64,000 nt of DNA, taken from NCBI GenBank assembly GCA_011523635.1, contig WTGI01000059.1, positions 1 through 64,000 on the forward strand. Reading direction: 5' to 3'. Source of the DNA: Acidimicrobiia bacterium. GTDB lineage: Bacteria > Actinomycetota > Acidimicrobiia > Spongiisociales > Spongiisociaceae. Below the pieces are notes generated by a model, which saw nothing but the letters and a program-made list of their open reading frames with translations, had not been told where the DNA came from and did no database searches. The position numbers and the translations under genes are program-made. The stretch's first letter is position 1, and the number at the start of each line of letters is the position of its first letter. Below, one piece after another: positions 1 through 9,537 of the stretch.

Positions 1-1
1 C

Positions 2-1183
2 CCAGTAGTCGCCGCCGACGCCGCCACCCACACCCAGACCGGCCTCACCGGCGGCGACTACTGGGTGCGCGTCCGCGCTCGCAACAGCGACCAGCACAGC
101 GACTGGACCACCAGCCAACAAATCACCATCGGCACCGGAGCACTCAGAGCCTGGTTCGCCCACGGCACGCCGACCCTCCGGTTCGATACCAGCCATGACA
201 GAGCCGAGGGGGTGAGGGTGTTCGTGGGAATCGACGGCAACAAGAACTTCGCCGGCGACTGCGACCTGCTAGCCCACACCGTGGCCAGGGAGGATTTCAG
301 CTTCACCAACTGCCCGAAGGGAAACTTGAACAGCCTCTCGGGCTTCCGCGCCGCCTCCGGCCAAGACGCGTTCACCTCGTACTTGGTGAAAGTCGAGTCG
401 GTCCCCCACCCGACGCTCACAAAATACCGCCTGGTGCGGCCCCTCTGGGAGACCGAGCTGGTGATCCGCGGCACCGCCACCGCCGGCAGCGAGACAGCGA
501 GAACCTGGGACGTCTACACCGATGTCGGCGGCCCCACCGCGCCCCAGATCGCCGTGTCGGGCGGCAACACCAAGATCTCCGTCGGCTGGTCGACGCCCAG
601 CAGCCTGGGGGGCAAGCCCGGCAACACGCTCAGCGGCTGGCAGGTCTGGCACCGCCAGACCGGCACCACGGACTGGACCAAGTCGGCGTGGCAGACCGCC
701 GACACCCGCACCCTCGACATCACCGGGCTCACCAACGGCACCAGCTACGAGGTGCGCGTGCGCGCCGCGGCCCGGTCGAACCTCGACGGTGTCCTCACCG
801 CGTTCGAGGGCATGACCACCGGATCGTGCAGCAGCGACGTGTCGGTCATGTGCGCCGCCACCCCCACCGCCGCCACCCTCACCGCGCCCGGCGCGCCCAC
901 CTTCGGCTCGTCGCCGATAACCGCCGGCGACACCACACTCGCCGTGGCCTGGAACGCGCCCGCCGACACCGGCGGCGCCGCCGTACACGCCTACAGCATT
1001 CGCCACAAGGTCAGCACCGCCGGCGACGACACCTACGTGACCGCCACCGTCGACGGCCGCTCCACCACCCACACCATCAGCGGGCTCACGAACGGCACCC
1101 AATACACCGTGCAGGTCCGCACCCACACCGCCGCCGGCACCAGCGCCTGGACCACCATCGGCACCGGCACCCCCACCAGCTGA
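2..1183 (+). CDS. Fibronectin type III domain surface/secreted protein, 5'-truncated by window edge
   Basis: Frame is open from base 2 (PVVAADAATHTQTGLTGGDYWVRVRARN...), so the CDS begins upstream. FN3 signatures: SGWQVWHRQTG..TDWT, ITGLTNGTSYEVRVRA, AYSIRHK..., ISGLTNGTQYTVQVRTHTAAGTSAW. Confidence 0.8.
   Translation, partial: PVVAADAATHTQTGLTGGDYWVRVRARNSDQHSDWTTSQQITIGTGALRAWFAHGTPTLRFDTSHDRAEGVRVFVGIDGNKNFAGDCDLLAHTVAREDFSFTNCPKGNLNSLSGFRAASGQDAFTSYLVKVESVPHPTLTKYRLVRPLWETELVIRGTATAGSETARTWDVYTDVGGPTAPQIAVSGGNTKISVGWSTPSSLGGKPGNTLSGWQVWHRQTGTTDWTKSAWQTADTRTLDITGLTNGTSYEVRVRAAARSNLDGVLTAFEGMTTGSCSSDVSVMCAATPTAATLTAPGAPTFGSSPITAGDTTLAVAWNAPADTGGAAVHAYSIRHKVSTAGDDTYVTATVDGRSTTHTISGLTNGTQYTVQVRTHTAAGTSAWTTIGTGTPTS
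876..1170 (+). repeat. Direct repeat copy 1 (FN3 module), ~295 bp
   Basis: Aligned by eye without gaps to 2746..3040 at a constant offset of 1870 bp; about 6 mismatches, all in the first ~95 nt. Confidence 0.92.
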
Positions 1184-1299
1184 CCCGAACAACCCGCCTC
1201 GCGGTGGCAGACCCGCTCGGGCTCGCCCGATCGGGCGGGAGTTCGGCCGCTGAGGCCAGGGCAGCCCCGGTCGGCCGAAGTGTGCATCATGAGTCAATT

Positions 1300-1328
1300 C
1301 ATAGCCACATAGCCACTATCTGGCTATG
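1300..1328. promoter_or_regulatory. Putative AbiEi autoregulatory operator (CATAGCCA x2 direct plus inverted TGGCTATG)
   Basis: Reads CATAGCCACATAGCCACTATCTGGCTATG: half-sites at 1300-1307 and 1308-1315, inverted copy at 1321-1328, immediately upstream of the likely AbiEi start (ATG at 1338). Confidence 0.6.
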
Positions 1329-1910
1329 ATTTCATACATGGCCTCGACAACCATTCCGATCGCGTTTACGCACGCCCAAGCCCGCGACCTCGGAATCTCG
1401 AACCGCGACCTCGCGAAGCTGACCGCCCAAGGCGACCTGGAACGCATTGCGCGCGGCATCTACGCCCGCGCCGGACACGGTGTGGACCCAGACCTTCTCG
1501 AGCTGGCTCTGCGCAACCCTCACACCACCCTGTGCCTCACAACCGCCTTCGCTCACCACGACCTCACCGACGAGATCCCCCACACCATCGACGCCGCCCT
1601 GCCGCGTCACCACTGGCAGCCGAAGACACGGGCTCCCGTCACCTGGCATCGGTTCGACCGCGACACCTTCCACATCGGACGCGACGATCTTCGCCTCGCC
1701 GACACGATCACCATTGCCATCTACAGTCCGGCGCGCTCGATCATCGACGCCTACCGCCTCCGTCATCGACTCGGCATCGACCTCGCACACACAGCCCTGC
1801 GCCGCTGGCTCAACCAACGCGGCAACCATCCCTCCGAGCTCCTAGAACTAGCCAGATCGTTCCCACACGCCATGCCAGCACTTCGCGCCGCAATCGAAAC
1901 CCTTCAATGA
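1326..1910 (+). CDS. abiEi: AbiEi-type antitoxin (type IV TA; N-terminal winged-helix)
   Basis: ITHAQARDLGISNRDLAKLTAQGDLERIARGIYARAG N-terminus and SPARSIIDAYRLRHRLG...ALRRWLNQRG are typical of AbiEi/DUF4095-like antitoxins. Start may be ATG 1338. Confidence 0.82.
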   Translation: MISYMASTTIPIAFTHAQARDLGISNRDLAKLTAQGDLERIARGIYARAGHGVDPDLLELALRNPHTTLCLTTAFAHHDLTDEIPHTIDAALPRHHWQPKTRAPVTWHRFDRDTFHIGRDDLRLADTITIAIYSPARSIIDAYRLRHRLGIDLAHTALRRWLNQRGNHPSELLELARSFPHAMPALRAAIETLQ

Positions 1911-3053
1911 GCCCCCGACCGAGCCGAGACACAACCGCGGGCGCCGCCTATCTCGACCTCCAGGCCGCCGGCCCGCGCCACAGGCCGACCAGTCGACGAA
2001 CTCTTCCAGCTCTACGCGCTCGAAGGCTTCCTCCGCCGCCTCGTCGAAACCGACCACGCCACAACGTTCGTCCTCAAAGGCGGTGTCCTGCTCGCCGCCT
2101 ACACCGACAGACGACCAACCCGCGACATCGACCTAGCCGGAACCGATGTCGACGGCGACCTCACCGCCATCGCAAACATCGTCGCCGACATCGTGACCGT
2201 GAATCTCGATGACGGCCTCGACCAGCTGGCCATCGCCAAGGTGGAGGAGATCCGCGACGAGGCGTCCTATCCAGGAATCCGCGCAACAGTCACCGGACAT
2301 CTCGACCGGGCGAAGCTCCGCTTCCACGTCGACATCAACATCGGTGACCCGCGCTGGCCCGAACCAGACCTCGTCGAGCTTCCTCAACTCCTCCACGCCG
2401 AGCCAATCCCCGTCCGCGCCTACTCCGCCGAGCTGATGCTGGCCGAGAAGATCGTCACCGCGATCCAACGCGGGACAGCATCAACGCGCTGGCGTGACTT
2501 CGTCGACATCGCCGCACTCGCCAAGACTCAAGTCGACATGACCCGCCTCAGCGCAGCCCTACAGATGGTCGCGGACCATCGACAAGTGAGCATCCGCCCG
2601 TTGGCCAACGTCCTCGACGGCTACGCCGAGCTGGCACAAAGCAGATGGTCGGCCTGGCGCAATCGCCAAGCCCTCCACACCACCCCAGAGCAATTCGCTG
2701 ACCTCCTAGATCAGGTGATCACCTTCGCCGATCCACTCCTGCAGCCCCTCACCGCGCCCGGCGCGCCCACCTTCGGGTCGTCGCCCATCACCGCCGGCGA
2801 CACCACCCTCGCCGTGGCCTGGAACGCCCCCGCCGACACCGGCGGCGCCGCCGTACACGCCTACAGCATCCGCCACAAGGTCAGCACCGCCGGCGACGAC
2901 ACCTACGTGACCGCCACCGTCGACGGCCGCTCCACCACCCACACCATCAGCGGGCTCACGAACGGCACCCAATACACCGTGCAGGTCCGCACCCACACCG
3001 CCGCCGGCACCAGCGCCTGGACCACCATCGGCACCGGCACGCCGGCGAACTAG
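1907..3053 (+). pseudogene. abiEii: AbiEii nucleotidyltransferase toxin, frameshifted near ~1970 and C-terminally fused to an FN3 module
   Basis: ATG 1907 overlaps the abiEi stop. N-terminus MSPRPSRDTTAGAAYLDLQAA is in one frame; GRPVDELFQLYALEGFLRRLVETDHATTFVLKGGVLLAAYTDRRPTRDIDLAG (NTase motif) is in the +1 frame, continuing to 3053. Last ~100 aa are the FN3 repeat. Confidence 0.75.
2746..3040 (+). repeat. Direct repeat copy 2 (FN3 module), ~295 bp
   Basis: See copy 1 at 876..1170. Confidence 0.92.
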
Positions 3054-3470
3054 CCCGGAGCGGCGCCGCTGGGACGACATCGCCGGCACTGCCTATGACT
3101 GGCTGAACGGCGGACTAGGCAATTACACGCTGACTGTTCCTGGAGGGGGCAACGACTACCAGTTCGGCAGCAGCCGGTACGACCTCAACTTCGGGAATGA
3201 CGTCATCACGCACTTCAAAGCCACATAGCTCCAAAACGGCCCGAACGCCTATGACAAGATCTCCCTGTGCATGGGCACCCCTGGAACCTCCCCACTCAGA
3301 GCGCCGTCGTCGCCAGCGGCAACCTGGTCATCACCGTCACCTTCAGCGGGCAGACGGCGGGGACCATCACCTCGAACGGCATAACCAGCACCGAGAACGT
3401 GCGCATCGAGAGACCGCGCCAGAACGGCGGCCACTGCTTCAAGCGCCCCGGCGCCGCGAGTCCGTACTAA
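3054..3470 (+). pseudogene. Degraded tail of a surface protein (several frames)
   Basis: AGTAYDWLNGGLGNYTLTVPGGGNDYQFGSSRYDLNFGNDVITHFKAT*LQNGPNAYDKISLCMGTP, then another frame ...AVVASGNLVITVTFSGQTAGTITSNGITSTENV. Low-complexity secreted-type sequence broken by a stop and a frame change. Confidence 0.45.
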
Positions 3471-3530
3471 CGCCGAGGAGTGTCATCCGCGGAGCGGGCC
3501 GCGTGCAACCTCGTCCTCCTTGCGAGGCAC

Positions 3531-4772
3531 TCAGGCGCCGGGTTGGTGTCGCCGCGCGGCGGCGAGCGCTGACAGGACCTGGCGGATGTCCGCTTCAGTG
3601 TGGTCGGCGTTGACTTGGAGGCGGATCTCCTCGTCGCCCTTCGGTACCACGGGATAGGCGAGGCCGGTTGCGAGGATGCCGGCGTCGTACAGAGCCTTTA
3701 CCAGGCGCCGGGTCTCGCCCGTGTCCCGCAACATCAGGGGCACGATGGGATGTTCCCCGGGAATGACCTCGTACCCGAGCGACTGGAGTCCGGATTCGAG
3801 CACGTGGGTGAGCCTGCGCAGGCGGGCCAGCAGAGCCTCACCCTCCGCACTCCGCAGGATGCCCAGCGCCGCCGTCGCCGCGGCAGCCTCGCCGGCGGTG
3901 ATCGGGTTCGAGTAGATGTAGAGCGGGGAAGCCTCGCGGAGGAACCGGACCACCGGGCGGCGCGACACCACGTAGCCCCCGTTCACTCCGAATGCCTTGC
4001 CGAGCGTTCCGATGAGCACGTCCGGGGGTGGGCCGCCCGTGTACTCCTCGGTTCCCCGTCCTGTGGTGCCGAACGCGCCGACACCGTGGGAGTCGTCCAC
4101 CACCACCACGACGTTCTCGGGGAAACCGTCGTCGTGACGGCGTGCGATCTCCATGATCCGGTCCAGCGGCGCGTGGTCACCCCGCATGGAGAAGATCCCG
4201 TCGGTGACGACGACGGCGCGACGGGCCCGGCCGGTGGCCTCCTCCAGTAGCCGGTCGAGCTCCGCCAGGTCGAGGTGCGGGTAGACCGCCTTGCCGGCGG
4301 GCCGGGCGAGGCGGACGGCGTTGATGATGGAGTTGTGGTTGAGCTCGTCCGAGATCACCGCGGTGGACGGATCGATCAGGGCGACCAGGGCGCCCACCAC
4401 CGCGTTGTATGCCGACGAGTAGATCATTCCTTCCTCCCGGCCGTGGAAGCCGGCCAGGCTGCGCTCCAGCTCGACATGGGCCGAGTGGGTGCCGATGATG
4501 AACCGGACCGCTCCCGGACCTGCTCCCGCAGCAAGCGCGGCGTCCTCCCCCGCCCGGATCACCGCCGGATGCAGGCCCAGCCCCAGGTAGGAGTTCGAGT
4601 TCATCCGGATGAACTGGCGATCTCCCTCACCTTCGAGCAGGAAACGCGGCCCACGCTCTCCGGCGGGCCGGATCACCCCCCGAACAACGGTTTCCCGCCC
4701 CTTGGCGGTCTCCTGCTGCTCGAGCCTTGCTACGTGACGGTCGAGTACGTCTGACAAGCGGTCCAATGGCAT
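3531..4772 (-). CDS. PLP-dependent alpha-oxoamine synthase family (8-amino-7-oxononanoate synthase / 2-amino-3-ketobutyrate CoA ligase-like)
   Basis: NSNSYLGLGLHPAV, SDELNHNSIINAVRLA, VVVDDSHGVGAFGTTGRG, GTLGKAFGVNGGYV (PLP lysine) motifs. Confidence 0.9.
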   Translation of the reverse strand: MPLDRLSDVLDRHVARLEQQETAKGRETVVRGVIRPAGERGPRFLLEGEGDRQFIRMNSNSYLGLGLHPAVIRAGEDAALAAGAGPGAVRFIIGTHSAHVELERSLAGFHGREEGMIYSSAYNAVVGALVALIDPSTAVISDELNHNSIINAVRLARPAGKAVYPHLDLAELDRLLEEATGRARRAVVVTDGIFSMRGDHAPLDRIMEIARRHDDGFPENVVVVVDDSHGVGAFGTTGRGTEEYTGGPPPDVLIGTLGKAFGVNGGYVVSRRPVVRFLREASPLYIYSNPITAGEAAAATAALGILRSAEGEALLARLRRLTHVLESGLQSLGYEVIPGEHPIVPLMLRDTGETRRLVKALYDAGILATGLAYPVVPKGDEEIRLQVNADHTEADIRQVLSALAAARRHQPGA

Positions 4773-4942
4773 CTCGCCTCGCTGTGGTCGGTCAACCCTC
4801 CAGATTATCCGCCGGCGCGGCCGGCTTCTTCTGTCGGCCGGCCTGGCGAAGCTACTCTCGGTCCGGTGCCCATCCGATGTGACGGTGAGAAGCGTCTAGT
4901 CCTACCGGCAACCTCTCGGAACGGGCGAGTGTCAGGCTTCGA

Positions 4943-5146
4943 TCAGCCGGAGATCCGGAGGGCCTCAGCGAGGAAAGAGGCAAGTTGGTCGCGGCGTACG
5001 GGTTCATCCGGGCAATAGTTGCGGCCCGGTGTCTTCTCGCAACCTCGGTTAACGCCGGCGGCCAGGATTGCCTCCACTGCGGCGGCGTAGAACGCGTCGG
5101 CGGGCACGTCGTCGAAGACCCCGGTGGGTGTTTCCACCGGGGTCAT
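4943..5146 (-). CDS. Single SLH repeat, probable third SLH repeat of the upstream protein in a shifted frame
   Basis: MTPVETPTGVFDDVPADAFYAAAVEAILAAGVNRGCEKTPGRNYCPDEPVRRDQLASFLAEALRISG. ATG overlaps upstream TGA (ATGA, 5143-5146). Confidence 0.65.
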   Translation of the reverse strand: MTPVETPTGVFDDVPADAFYAAAVEAILAAGVNRGCEKTPGRNYCPDEPVRRDQLASFLAEALRISG

Positions 5147-7443
5147 CCGTCGAACGCGCTGGTAAGGAACAATGCCATGTGGGCTCGCGTCACGTGTTCC
5201 TTCGGCCGGAACGTCCCGTCGGGGTAGCCGGCGCTGATCTCGAGCTCGGCCAAGCGTTCCACGTAGGGCCTGTACCAGGAGTCGTCGGGTACGTCGGTGA
5301 AGAGCGACGGTCCCGATGTCGAGGCGACCGTTTCGCCTAGAGCGCGTATCAGGAACGTGGCCAACTGGGCCCGCGTGACCGGCCGGTCGGGGCAGTACAG
5401 TTTTAGCTCGCGATTGCAACCGCTGGTGATGCCCCGTTTGGCGAGGAAATCGATGTTCTCCTCGTGTATGTTGTTCTCGTCGTCCGCGAACGTCCCGACA
5501 TGGGGGTTGCCGACCCATACCCGGAACCGGTCCCCGACCCGCTCGGTGACCTCGACCCGGAGTCCCTCGACATTCAGATGATCACCCGGACCGTATACGT
5601 GGTCGGTCAGCTCGTAGATCTCCTGATCATTGTCCGGGGGCGGCGGGACCTGCCGGGTTCGCCGGCCAAGGCCGGTGCATGTGAGCCGATCCGGATGCGC
5701 CGGTGGGGATTCGGTGCTGCAAGCGGAGGCGCGCTGGTCGACCCGGTAGGCCTCCACACCAGTGGCCGGAATGCCGGCGTCGTATCCCGCGGCCACACGA
5801 GCACCCAATGAGATGAAATGCCCTGGGTCGCCGGTCGGTAGCACCAGCATCTGGGTGCCGGAGATGCCGATCGGCGCCAGGACGTAACTGGCGATTCCAC
5901 CCTCGTGGACAGCCACGTCGTCGGTATCGATCCAGCCCGCCGCGTACCTGTTGACCGCGATGGTGCCGGCCACCAGCCCGTTCCGTCGTAGCTCCCACCC
6001 GTGTGGGCTGCCACTGATCATGTCCATAGGGTTGTCGTACTCATCGATCTCGTAGCCTCCGGCGAGGAGCGCATCGTGGGTCTGAGGTCGTTTGCCGCCG
6101 AATGAATGGGGCCAACCCAGCGCGTGGCCCATTTCATGAGCTACGGTATCCAGGTTGATGTGGTCCGGGTACTGGCAGTCGGAACAGTAAGCCGAGACGG
6201 GCAGCACAGTGCTCGACGACAGTTGAATGGAACGACTGTTGTCGGGGAAGGTCCCGGCCGACACGGTCCAGGTGCCATCGACTTGGGAACTGTGCCGGCG
6301 CCCGGCCCCGCCGGAGCTGACAATCCCGTCCTTGTCGAGAACGATCACCGCTCCCTGCGTGCCACCTTCGGAGACTTCCGCCACCCGGTCCTCGCACTCG
6401 TAGTCGCTGGCACGCTGTGATTCGTGGGTGGGGTCGGCCTCAACAACGCCGCGGGCTACGAACTCAGGTCGGTACCGGCCGCCGGACAGCCAGGAGAAGT
6501 ACGCGGTTATCTCCCGGTTGAGCAGCGTGGCGGCATCCGCCGCATCAACCGGCAGGTCGCCGTCCGCGACGTCGCATACCCACACTTCCCAGGTGTCGGT
6601 GCCGAGTGTGTACGACCGGGCGATCCGGTGATCGGCGATCAACCCCAACGGGTCATGGTCATCACCGTTGGCTGTCCCCCACGCGGACGCGAACAGCCCG
6701 CGACCGGCCTCGTTGACCGCCGCGACTAGCACGTTGTACAGCCGGTAGTCGACGAGGCCCGTGATCCGGTGTCCACGTGCGTCCGAACCCAGGGTGTCCC
6801 CTGCCCTGGTCCACGACACACCTTCGGCTTCCTCGTAGGTCCAAGCCGACGAGCGATCCTGTTCGAGTACGTACCAGACCTCGTAGCCGGTTACCGGAGC
6901 GCCGCCATCATCAACGGGGGGTTCCCATTCCACCGTCACCGAGCCGGGTTCTTCTGCGCTCACCGTTGGTGCGGCAGGTACAGCCGGCGGCCGTACCTCA
7001 GGTGCCGCCTCACCCGGCCGGGCCAGTACGGAATCGTCGGACCACTCCCATTGATCGTCACCGTATTGCGCGGTCACGGTCAGTTCGTACCAGACCCCGT
7101 TGGTCAGGTCTCGCACCCGAGCCTGCCGGTTGTCCCGACCTACTCGGCTCTCGTCCTGGAACGACCACCATCGGGCTTCTGCTGGGTGGGCGCCCGCCTC
7201 CGCAGCCGAAAGGCGGTAGACGACCGTGTAGCCGTCTGCTTTCGGCCGGCCCGGGGGCACATCCCAAGCCACGGTCACCGATCCGTCCGTCTGCCTGGCC
7301 AAGCGAACATTCACCGGCCGGGCCGGTTTCTCGGGCTCATCGGACTGCGCCGCCGCCCCGGACGAAGATGCGAACATTACGGCGGCGACGACGAACAGGA
7401 AGACCGCCGTCTTGTGGAAGTTGTAGTGGGTGGTTCCGCGCAT
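5143..7443 (-). CDS. Secreted FN3 x2 - zincin metalloprotease - SLH x2 protein
   Basis: Signal peptide; FN3 repeats PARPVNVRLARQTDGSVTVAWDVPPG... and VPAAPTVSAEEPGSVTVEWEPP...; HEMGHALGWPHS zinc motif; SLH repeats NIDFLAKRGITSGC...PVTRAQLATFL and FTDVPDDSWYRPYVERLAE..GYPDGTFRPKEHVTRAHMALFL. Confidence 0.88.
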   Translation of the reverse strand: MRGTTHYNFHKTAVFLFVVAAVMFASSSGAAAQSDEPEKPARPVNVRLARQTDGSVTVAWDVPPGRPKADGYTVVYRLSAAEAGAHPAEARWWSFQDESRVGRDNRQARVRDLTNGVWYELTVTAQYGDDQWEWSDDSVLARPGEAAPEVRPPAVPAAPTVSAEEPGSVTVEWEPPVDDGGAPVTGYEVWYVLEQDRSSAWTYEEAEGVSWTRAGDTLGSDARGHRITGLVDYRLYNVLVAAVNEAGRGLFASAWGTANGDDHDPLGLIADHRIARSYTLGTDTWEVWVCDVADGDLPVDAADAATLLNREITAYFSWLSGGRYRPEFVARGVVEADPTHESQRASDYECEDRVAEVSEGGTQGAVIVLDKDGIVSSGGAGRRHSSQVDGTWTVSAGTFPDNSRSIQLSSSTVLPVSAYCSDCQYPDHINLDTVAHEMGHALGWPHSFGGKRPQTHDALLAGGYEIDEYDNPMDMISGSPHGWELRRNGLVAGTIAVNRYAAGWIDTDDVAVHEGGIASYVLAPIGISGTQMLVLPTGDPGHFISLGARVAAGYDAGIPATGVEAYRVDQRASACSTESPPAHPDRLTCTGLGRRTRQVPPPPDNDQEIYELTDHVYGPGDHLNVEGLRVEVTERVGDRFRVWVGNPHVGTFADDENNIHEENIDFLAKRGITSGCNRELKLYCPDRPVTRAQLATFLIRALGETVASTSGPSLFTDVPDDSWYRPYVERLAELEISAGYPDGTFRPKEHVTRAHMALFLTSAFDG

Positions 7444-7473
7444 CGTTTGGCCCCGCGTACGTCCGCTACGTGA

Positions 7474-9537
7474 TCACAGAAAGCCTCTCGGGACCGAGGT
7501 GTGCCAGGTGCGGGAGAAGTGGGGTTTGCCGTCGGCGCGGACCTCCGACGCCGTGACGGCGTGGAAGGAGTCGGAACTCCCCACCACGCGGGTGGAGCTT
7601 CTGACCTCGGTCCGGGAAGTCCCGTGGTCGACATCGAAGCGGAATCCGGCTTCGACGCTCGAGTTGGCCGGGTCGGACCGGTCGGTGGTGACCTTGAAGT
7701 CCGTGTGGGTACGGATCCGGGCGCCGTTGTCGTTGGTGGAGTTTCCCCCCATCGAGATCACCACGCTCACCTCGGTACCGGCCAGGTCCTCGACCAGGTC
7801 CCATCGCGTCGGCTCGCCGGTCCCCCGCGGATCGGGCAGGGGATGGGCCGTTCGGTAGTCGGGTGGGGGAAGACCGGAGTCGGGCCGGCTCACGACCGGG
7901 AGGCTGATCCCGGAGGGGTGGTCCGCGTCCATGTGGATGGTGTTGACGGCGTTCTGCGGCAGGGGCCAGACCAGCGGGAAGTCGGCGCTGGAGATCATGA
8001 CGCCGATCCGGTGGCCGGCTTCGAACGTGTAGGACACAGCCTCCAGCTCGATGGTGATCTCAGTGACCTGGCCGGGCACGAGGGGCTCGGGGTCGGTCCT
8101 GGAGTTCCGCTGGGTGGCGTTCTTGATCGCCCTGGACACGAGCGCCCAGGGACCGTCGGGATGCACGTCGATCAGCTTCACGGAGAAGGCGGTGATCTCG
8201 GCGGTCGAGGATACGAAGAGGGTGGCCTCGGGGAAGCCGGTCACCTCGCAGTCCGCTTCGAGTGGCTCCCCGAGGAAGACCACCGACCCCGCGGCATCAC
8301 GACGCTGGTCGATGGGGAGGCCGACATCGGCGCCGAGCCCGGTGATCAGACCCATGGTCGAGATGCCCACCGCCGGGTCGTAGGTGTAGGAGACGCGGTC
8401 CTCCCCTCCCGACGGCGCCGAGCCGTCGAGCCGTCCGTCGGGTTGGAGATAGAGGGTGTGGTCCGTGGCCCGGGCGAGGGGCCAGTCAGCCTCCGAGCGC
8501 CAGTAGCCGCCGGCCCCGTCCCGGCGAGCCTGGGGTTGGTCGTAACCCCGTACCCACATGCTGATGGGCGGTTCGTCCGAGATACCGGTGTCCTTCCCCT
8601 TGAGATGCTGGTCGAACCAGCGCACGATCTCGTGGAGGTGGTCGAACCGTTCTCCGGGCACCCCGATGTTGGGAGCGATGTGGAGGTACGGACCCATCAT
8701 CAGCTTCTTGGGTACGTCAGGGCTCAGGCCCATATACATGTAGAAGGGGTCGGAGACGAAGATGTCGTGCCACCCGCCGAAGATGAAGGTGGCGGCCCGG
8801 ATGTTCTCGAGCCCGTAGCGGACCGAGCCTTCATGCCACACCGGACCGTCCACCGGGTTGCGCATCCAGGTGTCGAGCCAGGGCTTGTTGGCGGCGAGGT
8901 GTTCCTCCCATATCTCCAGCCACGCGCCCTCCGGATCGGGCGCCGGAGGCGCTCCTGACAGAGCGGTCATCATTGCGTTGTAGGCGCCGGTCCAGATGGA
9001 GGTCTGCCACATGCCTCCATGGTGGCTGTTCTCGTAGAGGTCCCATCCGGCGTAGATGGGGGCGATGGCCTTGAGGCTGGGAGGCGCCTGGGCAGCGGTG
9101 AGCAGGGACGAGTACCCGCCGTACGAGACTCCGGTCATCCCTACCGCCCCGGTGCACCACGGCTGGGCGGCCAGCCACTCCACCGCGTCGTAGCCGTCCT
9201 CCCATTCCTGGCGGCGGAGCATCCGGTCGCATACGCCGGCCGAGGCGCCGGTTCCCCGCACATCGAGCAGGGCGGTGATGTAGCCATGGGCGGCGTAGTA
9301 GCTGGCGCGGTCCACGGTCAGGCCGCGCAGCAGGTCGTCCTTGCGGTACGGGTAGTACTTGATGATCAACGGGGCGGGGTCGTCCGACTCCGGATAGAAC
9401 AGGTCGGCGGACAGCTCGACACCGTCCCGCATCGGGATACGAACGTTGGGCCTGGTCCGGGCCGGGCCGGGCCGCTTTTCGAGCCAAGTAGTCATAGCCT
9501 GCAAGCTACACCGAAACCGCGGTGCCCGCCGGAGCAA
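7474..9537 (-). CDS. CocE/NonD family alpha/beta hydrolase (Xaa-Pro dipeptidyl-peptidase S15-like)
   Basis: IPMRDGVELSADLFYPE, LLDVRGTGASAG, MTGVSYGGYSSLLTAAQAPPSLKAIAPI motifs; C-terminal beta-sandwich. Confidence 0.92.
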   Translation of the reverse strand: MLRRAPRFRCSLQAMTTWLEKRPGPARTRPNVRIPMRDGVELSADLFYPESDDPAPLIIKYYPYRKDDLLRGLTVDRASYYAAHGYITALLDVRGTGASAGVCDRMLRRQEWEDGYDAVEWLAAQPWCTGAVGMTGVSYGGYSSLLTAAQAPPSLKAIAPIYAGWDLYENSHHGGMWQTSIWTGAYNAMMTALSGAPPAPDPEGAWLEIWEEHLAANKPWLDTWMRNPVDGPVWHEGSVRYGLENIRAATFIFGGWHDIFVSDPFYMYMGLSPDVPKKLMMGPYLHIAPNIGVPGERFDHLHEIVRWFDQHLKGKDTGISDEPPISMWVRGYDQPQARRDGAGGYWRSEADWPLARATDHTLYLQPDGRLDGSAPSGGEDRVSYTYDPAVGISTMGLITGLGADVGLPIDQRRDAAGSVVFLGEPLEADCEVTGFPEATLFVSSTAEITAFSVKLIDVHPDGPWALVSRAIKNATQRNSRTDPEPLVPGQVTEITIELEAVSYTFEAGHRIGVMISSADFPLVWPLPQNAVNTIHMDADHPSGISLPVVSRPDSGLPPPDYRTAHPLPDPRGTGEPTRWDLVEDLAGTEVSVVISMGGNSTNDNGARIRTHTDFKVTTDRSDPANSSVEAGFRFDVDHGTSRTEVRSSTRVVGSSDSFHAVTASEVRADGKPHFSRTWHTSVPRGFL

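What the first reader, a model, noticed from the sequence alone, without database searches (positions are those of the whole stretch)
876..3040. AbiE TA cassette bracketed by ~295-bp near-identical FN3 direct repeats
Seen: 876-1170 and 2746-3040 align without gaps at a fixed 1870-bp offset, with about six mismatches by eye, all in the first third; the last ~195 nt are identical. Between them lie abiEi and abiEii. Recombination between the copies would excise exactly one repeat plus the cassette and leave a single FN3 terminus. The identity gradient suggests recent duplication or gene conversion. The TA may stabilise the locus or have moved in with a duplicated FN3 module.
Basis: partly seen in the sequence, partly recalled or inferred. 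Interest (0 to 1): 0.7.

Follow-up and report, generated by a model that had tools for sequence, protein, structure and literature searches.

The report
Transferred AbiE cassette between duplicated FN3 ends
A small, horizontally transferred bacterial toxin-antitoxin cassette (AbiE), now apparently with a broken toxin gene, landed at the end of a surface-protein gene and left that gene's last domain duplicated on either side; the parts are ordinary, but the locus is a readable footprint of how such cassettes get captured without a transposase.

Summary
The repeat is real: 876-1170 and 2746-3040 match without gaps (1870-bp offset), with 6 mismatches in 295 nt. All six are synonymous and lie at 907-1000; the last 170 nt (not ~195) are identical. 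Between them lies an abiEi-abiEii operon, but abiEii has a one-base frameshift near 1970 and no stop of its own: it reads in frame into FN3 copy 2. A congeneric genome (G005) has the empty allele: one FN3 end, the same 3' flank, then the same aminotransferase gene. The same ~1.5-kb cassette (92-93% nt) sits at unrelated loci in three other Acidimicrobiia genomes; an orthologous flanking gene is only ~70% identical, so the cassette moved horizontally. Two of those copies lie between tRNA-overlapping direct repeats. The intact relative L087 shows that abiEii was joined to FN3 at a 6-nt microhomology one codon before its natural stop. Best reading: a footprint of single-crossover or homology-facilitated illegitimate integration, later partly homogenised. 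The repeats came from capture; nothing shows that they mobilise it, and the toxin is probably dead, so 'TA stabilises the locus' is not supported. The genome is a draft in 91 contigs, so misassembly is not excluded. AbiE family: known.

The parts
2..1183 (+). 3' part of a large FN3-domain surface-type protein gene (5' end lost at contig start), ending ...GTGTPTS-stop
   Evidence: 393-aa open frame; fn3 E 1.1e-20; orthologous to the end of a 1648-aa frame in G005
876..1170 (+). FN3 direct repeat, copy 1
   Evidence: D1; 6 mismatches to copy 2
1171..1187 (+). C-terminal codons and stop of copy 1; differ from copy 2 but resemble the G005 gene end (9/14 nt; 0.45% of window 14-mers do as well)
1188..1223 (.). 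36 nt of unassigned sequence between FN3 gene end and the part shared with other abiE cassettes
   Evidence: alignment
1224..2754 (+). horizontally shared abiE cassette (92.7% nt identical to L087 4314-5843)
   Evidence: for the low identity or absence of flanking genes
1288..1340 (.). two 25-nt inverted arms (80% complementary) 3 nt apart at the start of abiEi; probable AbiEi operator, conserved in all four cassettes
   Evidence: I5; matches the two-IR, 3-bp-gap operator of PMC7319586
1326..1910 (+). abiEi antitoxin gene, intact, 194 aa; its stop overlaps the abiEii ATG (ATGA, 1907-1910)
   Evidence: AbiEi_4 E 1.8e-8; PADLOC AbiEi E 1.1e-50
1907..1970 (+). 5' end of abiEii in the ATG frame, up to a one-base frameshift near 1970 relative to L087/L088
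1971..2754 (+). body of abiEii (nucleotidyltransferase motifs I-IV all present), in a frame with no start codon upstream of motif I
   Evidence: AbiEii PF08843 E 2.3e-33; PADLOC E 1.7e-74
2748..2754 (+). junction abiEii/FN3: CTCACCG; TCACCG is common to the natural end of abiEii in L087 and to FN3 copy 1 at 879-884
2746..3040 (+). FN3 direct repeat, copy 2, fused in frame downstream of abiEii
3041..3085 (+). C-terminal codons, stop (3051-3053) and 3' flank of copy 2, matching the G005 flank (the empty-allele side)
3086..3470 (+). remnant of a related surface-protein (RTX-like) gene with frame breaks; not present at this place in G005
   Evidence: window 3265-3371 is 76% identical to an internal part of the G005 FN3 gene; in-frame stop at 3226-3228

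Best explanation
A compact AbiE type IV toxin-antitoxin cassette was acquired horizontally from another Acidimicrobiia lineage and captured at the 3' end of an FN3 surface-protein gene. Capture went by a homology-dependent event inside the terminal FN3 domain together with an illegitimate joint at a 6-nt microhomology (TCACCG). This means either single-crossover integration of a circular or recircularised molecule carrying FN3 homology, or homology-facilitated illegitimate recombination (HFIR). Either way the terminal FN3 domain ends up duplicated: copy 1 closes the gene, and copy 2 is the displaced host end, now in frame behind abiEii. The cassette has since decayed: abiEii is frameshifted and has lost its stop, while abiEi is intact. 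Part of the repeat was homogenised by gene conversion. SHOWN: repeat, empty allele, horizontal transfer of the cassette, microhomology at the right joint, frameshift and readthrough in the assembly. INFERRED: the recombination route, the gene conversion, the loss of toxin activity.
For: G005 has one FN3 end followed by the copy-2 flank and the aminotransferase gene 206 nt on; copy 1's upstream side and copy 2's downstream side are the two halves of that allele. No abiEii in the nine other genus genomes. The cassette is 92-93% identical at unrelated loci in L087, L088 and L218, although L088 and L218 belong to genomes that share only the class and L087's flanking oxygenase gene is ~70% identical to the G000 copy. 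L087 gives the natural end of abiEii (PLLQPFTD-stop) and the window leaves it at TCACCG, which FN3 shares at 879-884. Precedent: in E. coli, 56 of 60 recombinants recovered as candidate HFIR events instead carried a partial duplication of the homologous locus (109-950 bp in 14 sequenced clones), explained by single crossover of a shortened circular molecule (PMC3240628); HFIR with displaced 3' ends is proposed for V. cholerae T6SS loci (PMC5361080).
Against: A plain single crossover or HFIR predicts differences on one side of the crossover or throughout the repeat; here they sit at both ends around a 170-nt identical tract, so an extra gene-conversion step is needed. The left joint (1171-1223) has no clear junction. 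No donor locus with FN3 next to abiE was found. No reads were available to confirm the assembly.
Confidence: 0.55

Rival explanations
1. Deletion between tandem paralogs: two FN3 surface-protein genes stood in tandem with abiE between them; a deletion at the TCACCG microhomology removed the body of the second gene and fused its last FN3 domain to abiEii.
For: All six differences are synonymous, as for two domains that both evolved under selection. Copy 1 ends with its own native-looking stop, 9/14 nt like the G005 gene end. G005 has a second surface-protein gene with a near-identical N-terminus next to its FN3 gene, and the window holds a further paralog remnant at 3086-3470.
Against: The G005 neighbour does not end in this FN3 domain; no other close FN3 copy in the genome; needs the cassette to have entered between paralogs beforehand.
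Confidence: 0.22
2. Assembly artefact: the 170-nt identical tract exceeds usual short-read k-mer lengths, so the contig may wrongly join an empty FN3 allele with an abiE-FN3 segment of another strain.
For: The genome is a draft in 91 contigs; the window begins at a contig end with a 17-nt hairpin artefact-like inverted repeat at 1-17/49-65; strain mixture would give the same graph.
Against: The six mismatches tie the 5' part of each copy to different neighbours; the abiEii end joins FN3 at a microhomology, as real joints do; abiEi-abiEii is continuous and colinear with L087.
Confidence: 0.13
3. The FN3 copies act as a recombination pair for a selectable, reversible TA insertion: the cassette is gained and lost by homologous recombination and its toxin holds the locus.
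For: The geometry allows it; an empty allele exists in G005.
Against: abiEii is frameshifted and unterminated; G005 is a separate species (about 10% divergence over the syntenic flank), more likely never occupied than excised; the same cassette elsewhere has no FN3.
Confidence: 0.05

Closest known systems
AbiE type IV toxin-antitoxin system (AbiEi/AbiEii; PF13338, PF08843)
   Same: Bicistronic, 4-nt overlap, inverted-repeat operator with 3-nt gap, NTase motifs I-IV, AbiEi intact
   Different: abiEii is frameshifted, lacks its own stop and reads into an FN3 domain
Homology-facilitated illegitimate recombination / single crossover with partial duplication (PMC3240628)
   Same: Non-homologous insert flanked by a partial duplication of the homologous target (295 bp here, 109-950 bp there)
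   Different: Natural locus; microhomology at the illegitimate joint; partial sequence homogenisation; donor unknown
Displaced, orphaned 3' ends of Rhs and T6SS effector genes (PMC5361080)
   Same: A new gene end plus cargo sits upstream of the old, orphaned 3' end
   Different: Cargo is an intracellular TA, not an effector-immunity pair; the host gene is an FN3 surface-type protein
tRNA-associated genomic islands with short att repeats
   Same: The same cassette sits in such islands in L087 and L088
   Different: In the window there is no tRNA and the flanking repeats are 295-bp protein-coding DNA, not att cores

Membership tests
AbiE type IV TA | AbiEi antitoxin with N-terminal winged-helix domain | tested here: met
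   AbiEi_4 E 1.8e-8; PADLOC AbiEi E 1.1e-50
AbiE type IV TA | AbiEii DUF1814 nucleotidyltransferase with motifs I-IV | tested here: met
   PF08843 E 2.3e-33; GG-x13-DID, AEKIVTAIQR and RDFVD read in the frame; motifs as in PMC3985639
AbiE type IV TA | bicistronic operon with overlapping genes | tested here: met
   ATGA overlap at 1907-1910
AbiE type IV TA | promoter inverted repeats bound by AbiEi | tested here: inconclusive
   25-nt arms with a 3-nt gap at 1288-1340, conserved in four cassettes; binding not testable
AbiE type IV TA | intact, expressed toxin neutralised by AbiEi | tested here: not met
   abiEii frameshifted near 1970 with no own stop; an intact copy exists in L087. So: a degraded member, not a working pair as assembled
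Insertion by transposase or site-specific integrase | recombinase gene or short fixed target duplication at the cassette edges | tested here: not met
   No transposase or integrase frame between the repeats, only abiEi and abiEii; no tRNA in the window; flanking repeat is 295 bp of coding DNA
HFIR / single-crossover integration | homologous anchor at one end, microhomology or no homology at the other, partial duplication of target | tested here: inconclusive
   Duplication and TCACCG microhomology present; donor and crossover point not identified

The most novel reading that the evidence does not exclude
The ~1.5-kb abiE unit is a recombinase-free cassette that spreads across orders of Acidimicrobiia by hitching on whatever recombination is at hand (tRNA islands in two genomes, a surface-protein gene here), with the antitoxin kept and the toxin usually lost after arrival; repetitive FN3 gene ends serve as general landing pads.
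Probability: 0.2. Interest if true: 0.5.

Novelty: new member of a known kind. Interest (0 to 1): 0.3.

Why it matters
It is a natural example, with both an empty allele and an intact donor-type cassette on record, of how a small TA cassette enters a chromosome without a transposase and what scar it leaves. It also warns that an FN3 domain joined to AbiEii here is a joint of two broken genes and not a new toxin architecture, a trap for automatic annotation.

Tried and rejected
(1) Target-site duplication by a transposase: rejected, 295 bp of coding DNA and no recombinase. (2) A designed AbiEii-FN3 fusion toxin: rejected, the frame lacks a start upstream of motif I, FN3 is typical of exported proteins, and 92-93% identical cassettes have no FN3. 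(3) abiEii truncated by ~20 residues, as comparison with G034 first suggested: rejected after L087 and the short-tailed relatives L089-L091 showed the natural end is only about one codon beyond the joint. (4) Mobile unit [abiE + FN3]: no second such unit found in G000 or relatives or in viral contigs. (5) Phage or plasmid origin: only distant AbiEii matches (up to about 35% identity in the listed records). (6) Polarising the six mismatches with G005: three derived in each copy, so no copy is clearly the younger.

Full report
OBSERVATION. 876-1170 and 2746-3040 align without gaps at an offset of 1870 with six mismatches at 907, 916, 919, 937, 958 and 1000. All six are third-codon positions of the FN3 frame. 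The identical 3' tract is 170 nt. No other close copy exists in the genome. The window is the first 64 kb of an 83.8-kb contig of a 91-contig draft genome.

WHAT LIES BETWEEN. abiEi (1326-1910) is intact. abiEii starts at 1907 (ATGA overlap) but has a one-base frameshift near 1970 relative to its relatives L087 and L088. Its body, with all four nucleotidyltransferase motifs, is then in a frame that has no start codon ahead of motif I and no stop of its own; it runs in frame through FN3 copy 2 to 3053. A pair of 25-nt inverted arms 3 nt apart at the abiEi start (1288-1340) resembles the known AbiEi operator, two 23-bp repeats 3 bp apart, and is conserved in four cassettes.

EMPTY ALLELE. In the congeneric genome G005, a 1648-aa FN3 gene ends with one such FN3 domain (85% nt), followed by the flank that in the window follows copy 2, then the same aminotransferase gene 206 nt on. 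Over the following 6 kb the two genomes are 90.6% identical. G007 and G008 have the aminotransferase gene but no match to the FN3 gene next to it. None of the nine other genus genomes has a matching abiEii. So copy 1 carries the upstream half and copy 2 the downstream half of the ancestral gene end.

HORIZONTAL CASSETTE. The window's 1224-2754 is 92.7% identical to L087 (Acidimicrobiia MAG, JAJEEO010000015.1), and the abiE part is 92-93% identical in L088 (JAPOYA010000017.1) and L218 (G117), each at a different place with no FN3. L088 and L218 belong to a family that shares only the class with the window's genome; an oxygenase gene beside the L087 cassette is ~70% identical to its G000 counterpart, and the genomes of L087 and L088 gave no match to the aminotransferase gene at all. 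A cassette at 92-93% against ~70% for a neighbouring gene means horizontal transfer. L087 keeps an intact toxin gene; L088 has lost its 3' part; L218 has lost it almost wholly. abiEi is complete in all four.

VEHICLES ELSEWHERE. L088's cassette lies in a 2.1-kb insert behind tRNA-Ala, between 42-nt direct repeats that overlap the tRNA's last bases. L087's lies between a tRNA-Leu 3' end and a 17/17 copy of it 4.3 kb away. So in two genomes the cassette is cargo of tRNA-type islands; in the window it is not (no tRNA).

THE JOINTS. In L087 abiEii ends ...CTGCAGCCCTTCACCGACTGA. The window reads ...CTGCAGCCCCTCACCG and then FN3. TCACCG is shared by both parents (FN3 at 879-884), a 6-nt microhomology at the right joint. 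The left joint is less clear: copy 1 keeps four more C-terminal codons and a stop at the same codon as G005 (9/14 nt; 0.45% of random window 14-mers do as well), then 36 nt of unassigned DNA, then the cassette.

MECHANISM. A partial duplication of the target on both sides of a non-homologous insert is the expected product of single-crossover integration of a circular or recircularised molecule. In E. coli, 56 of 60 recombinants recovered as candidate HFIR events were of this kind, with duplications of 109-950 bp in 14 sequenced clones (PMC3240628). HFIR with displacement of an old 3' end is also proposed for V. cholerae T6SS loci (PMC5361080). I take one of these two routes as most likely. The mosaic of differences (six in 125 nt, none in 170 nt, many after 1170; Fisher p = 0.005 on third-codon positions, P = 0.006 for clustering) needs an added gene-conversion step, and the synonymous-only differences fit copies that diverged as working coding sequence. 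A deletion between tandem FN3 paralogs is the main rival. Misassembly across the 170-nt tract cannot be excluded without reads.

FUNCTION. As assembled, no working toxin can be made. AbiEi may still be expressed and may still repress its own promoter (inference). The FN3 segment behind abiEii is best seen as an orphaned gene end, not as part of a new toxin.

VERDICT. Known family, degraded member, with an informative integration scar. Interest modest.

Noticed in passing
L088 3629-5835: abiE (3'-truncated) in a 2.1-kb insert behind tRNA-Ala(tgc), between 42-nt direct repeats 3700-3741/5794-5835 that overlap the tRNA end; no integrase inside. Looks like a minimal or decayed tRNA island.
   Followed up: partly
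L087 4083-8462: intact abiE plus a DUF4238 protein gene and a weak DUF6036-like gene between the 3' end of tRNA-Leu (8378-8394) and an exact 17-nt copy of it at 4083-4099; a second tRNA-type island with the same cassette.
   Followed up: partly
window 3086-3470: Remnant of an RTX/FN3-type surface gene with frame breaks between FN3 copy 2 and the aminotransferase gene; absent from G005 at this place.
   Followed up: partly
window 1-65: Perfect 17-nt inverted repeat (1-17 / 49-65) exactly at the contig start; probably an assembly end artefact.
   Followed up: no
window 5143-7443 (minus strand): 766-aa secreted-type protein with FN3 domains and a C-terminal S-layer homology domain; a HEMGH motif suggests a metalloprotease (read by eye).
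   Followed up: no
L013 (G005), reverse strand 392-8452: Two surface-protein genes in a row share a near-identical N-terminus (KRRGLALVLAAVLSVVLSG...), a likely site for recombination between paralogs.
   Followed up: no
L218 4263-4987: 98.6% identical to L088 over the left flank plus abiEi, at another locus and without abiEii: antitoxin kept, toxin lost.
   Followed up: partly
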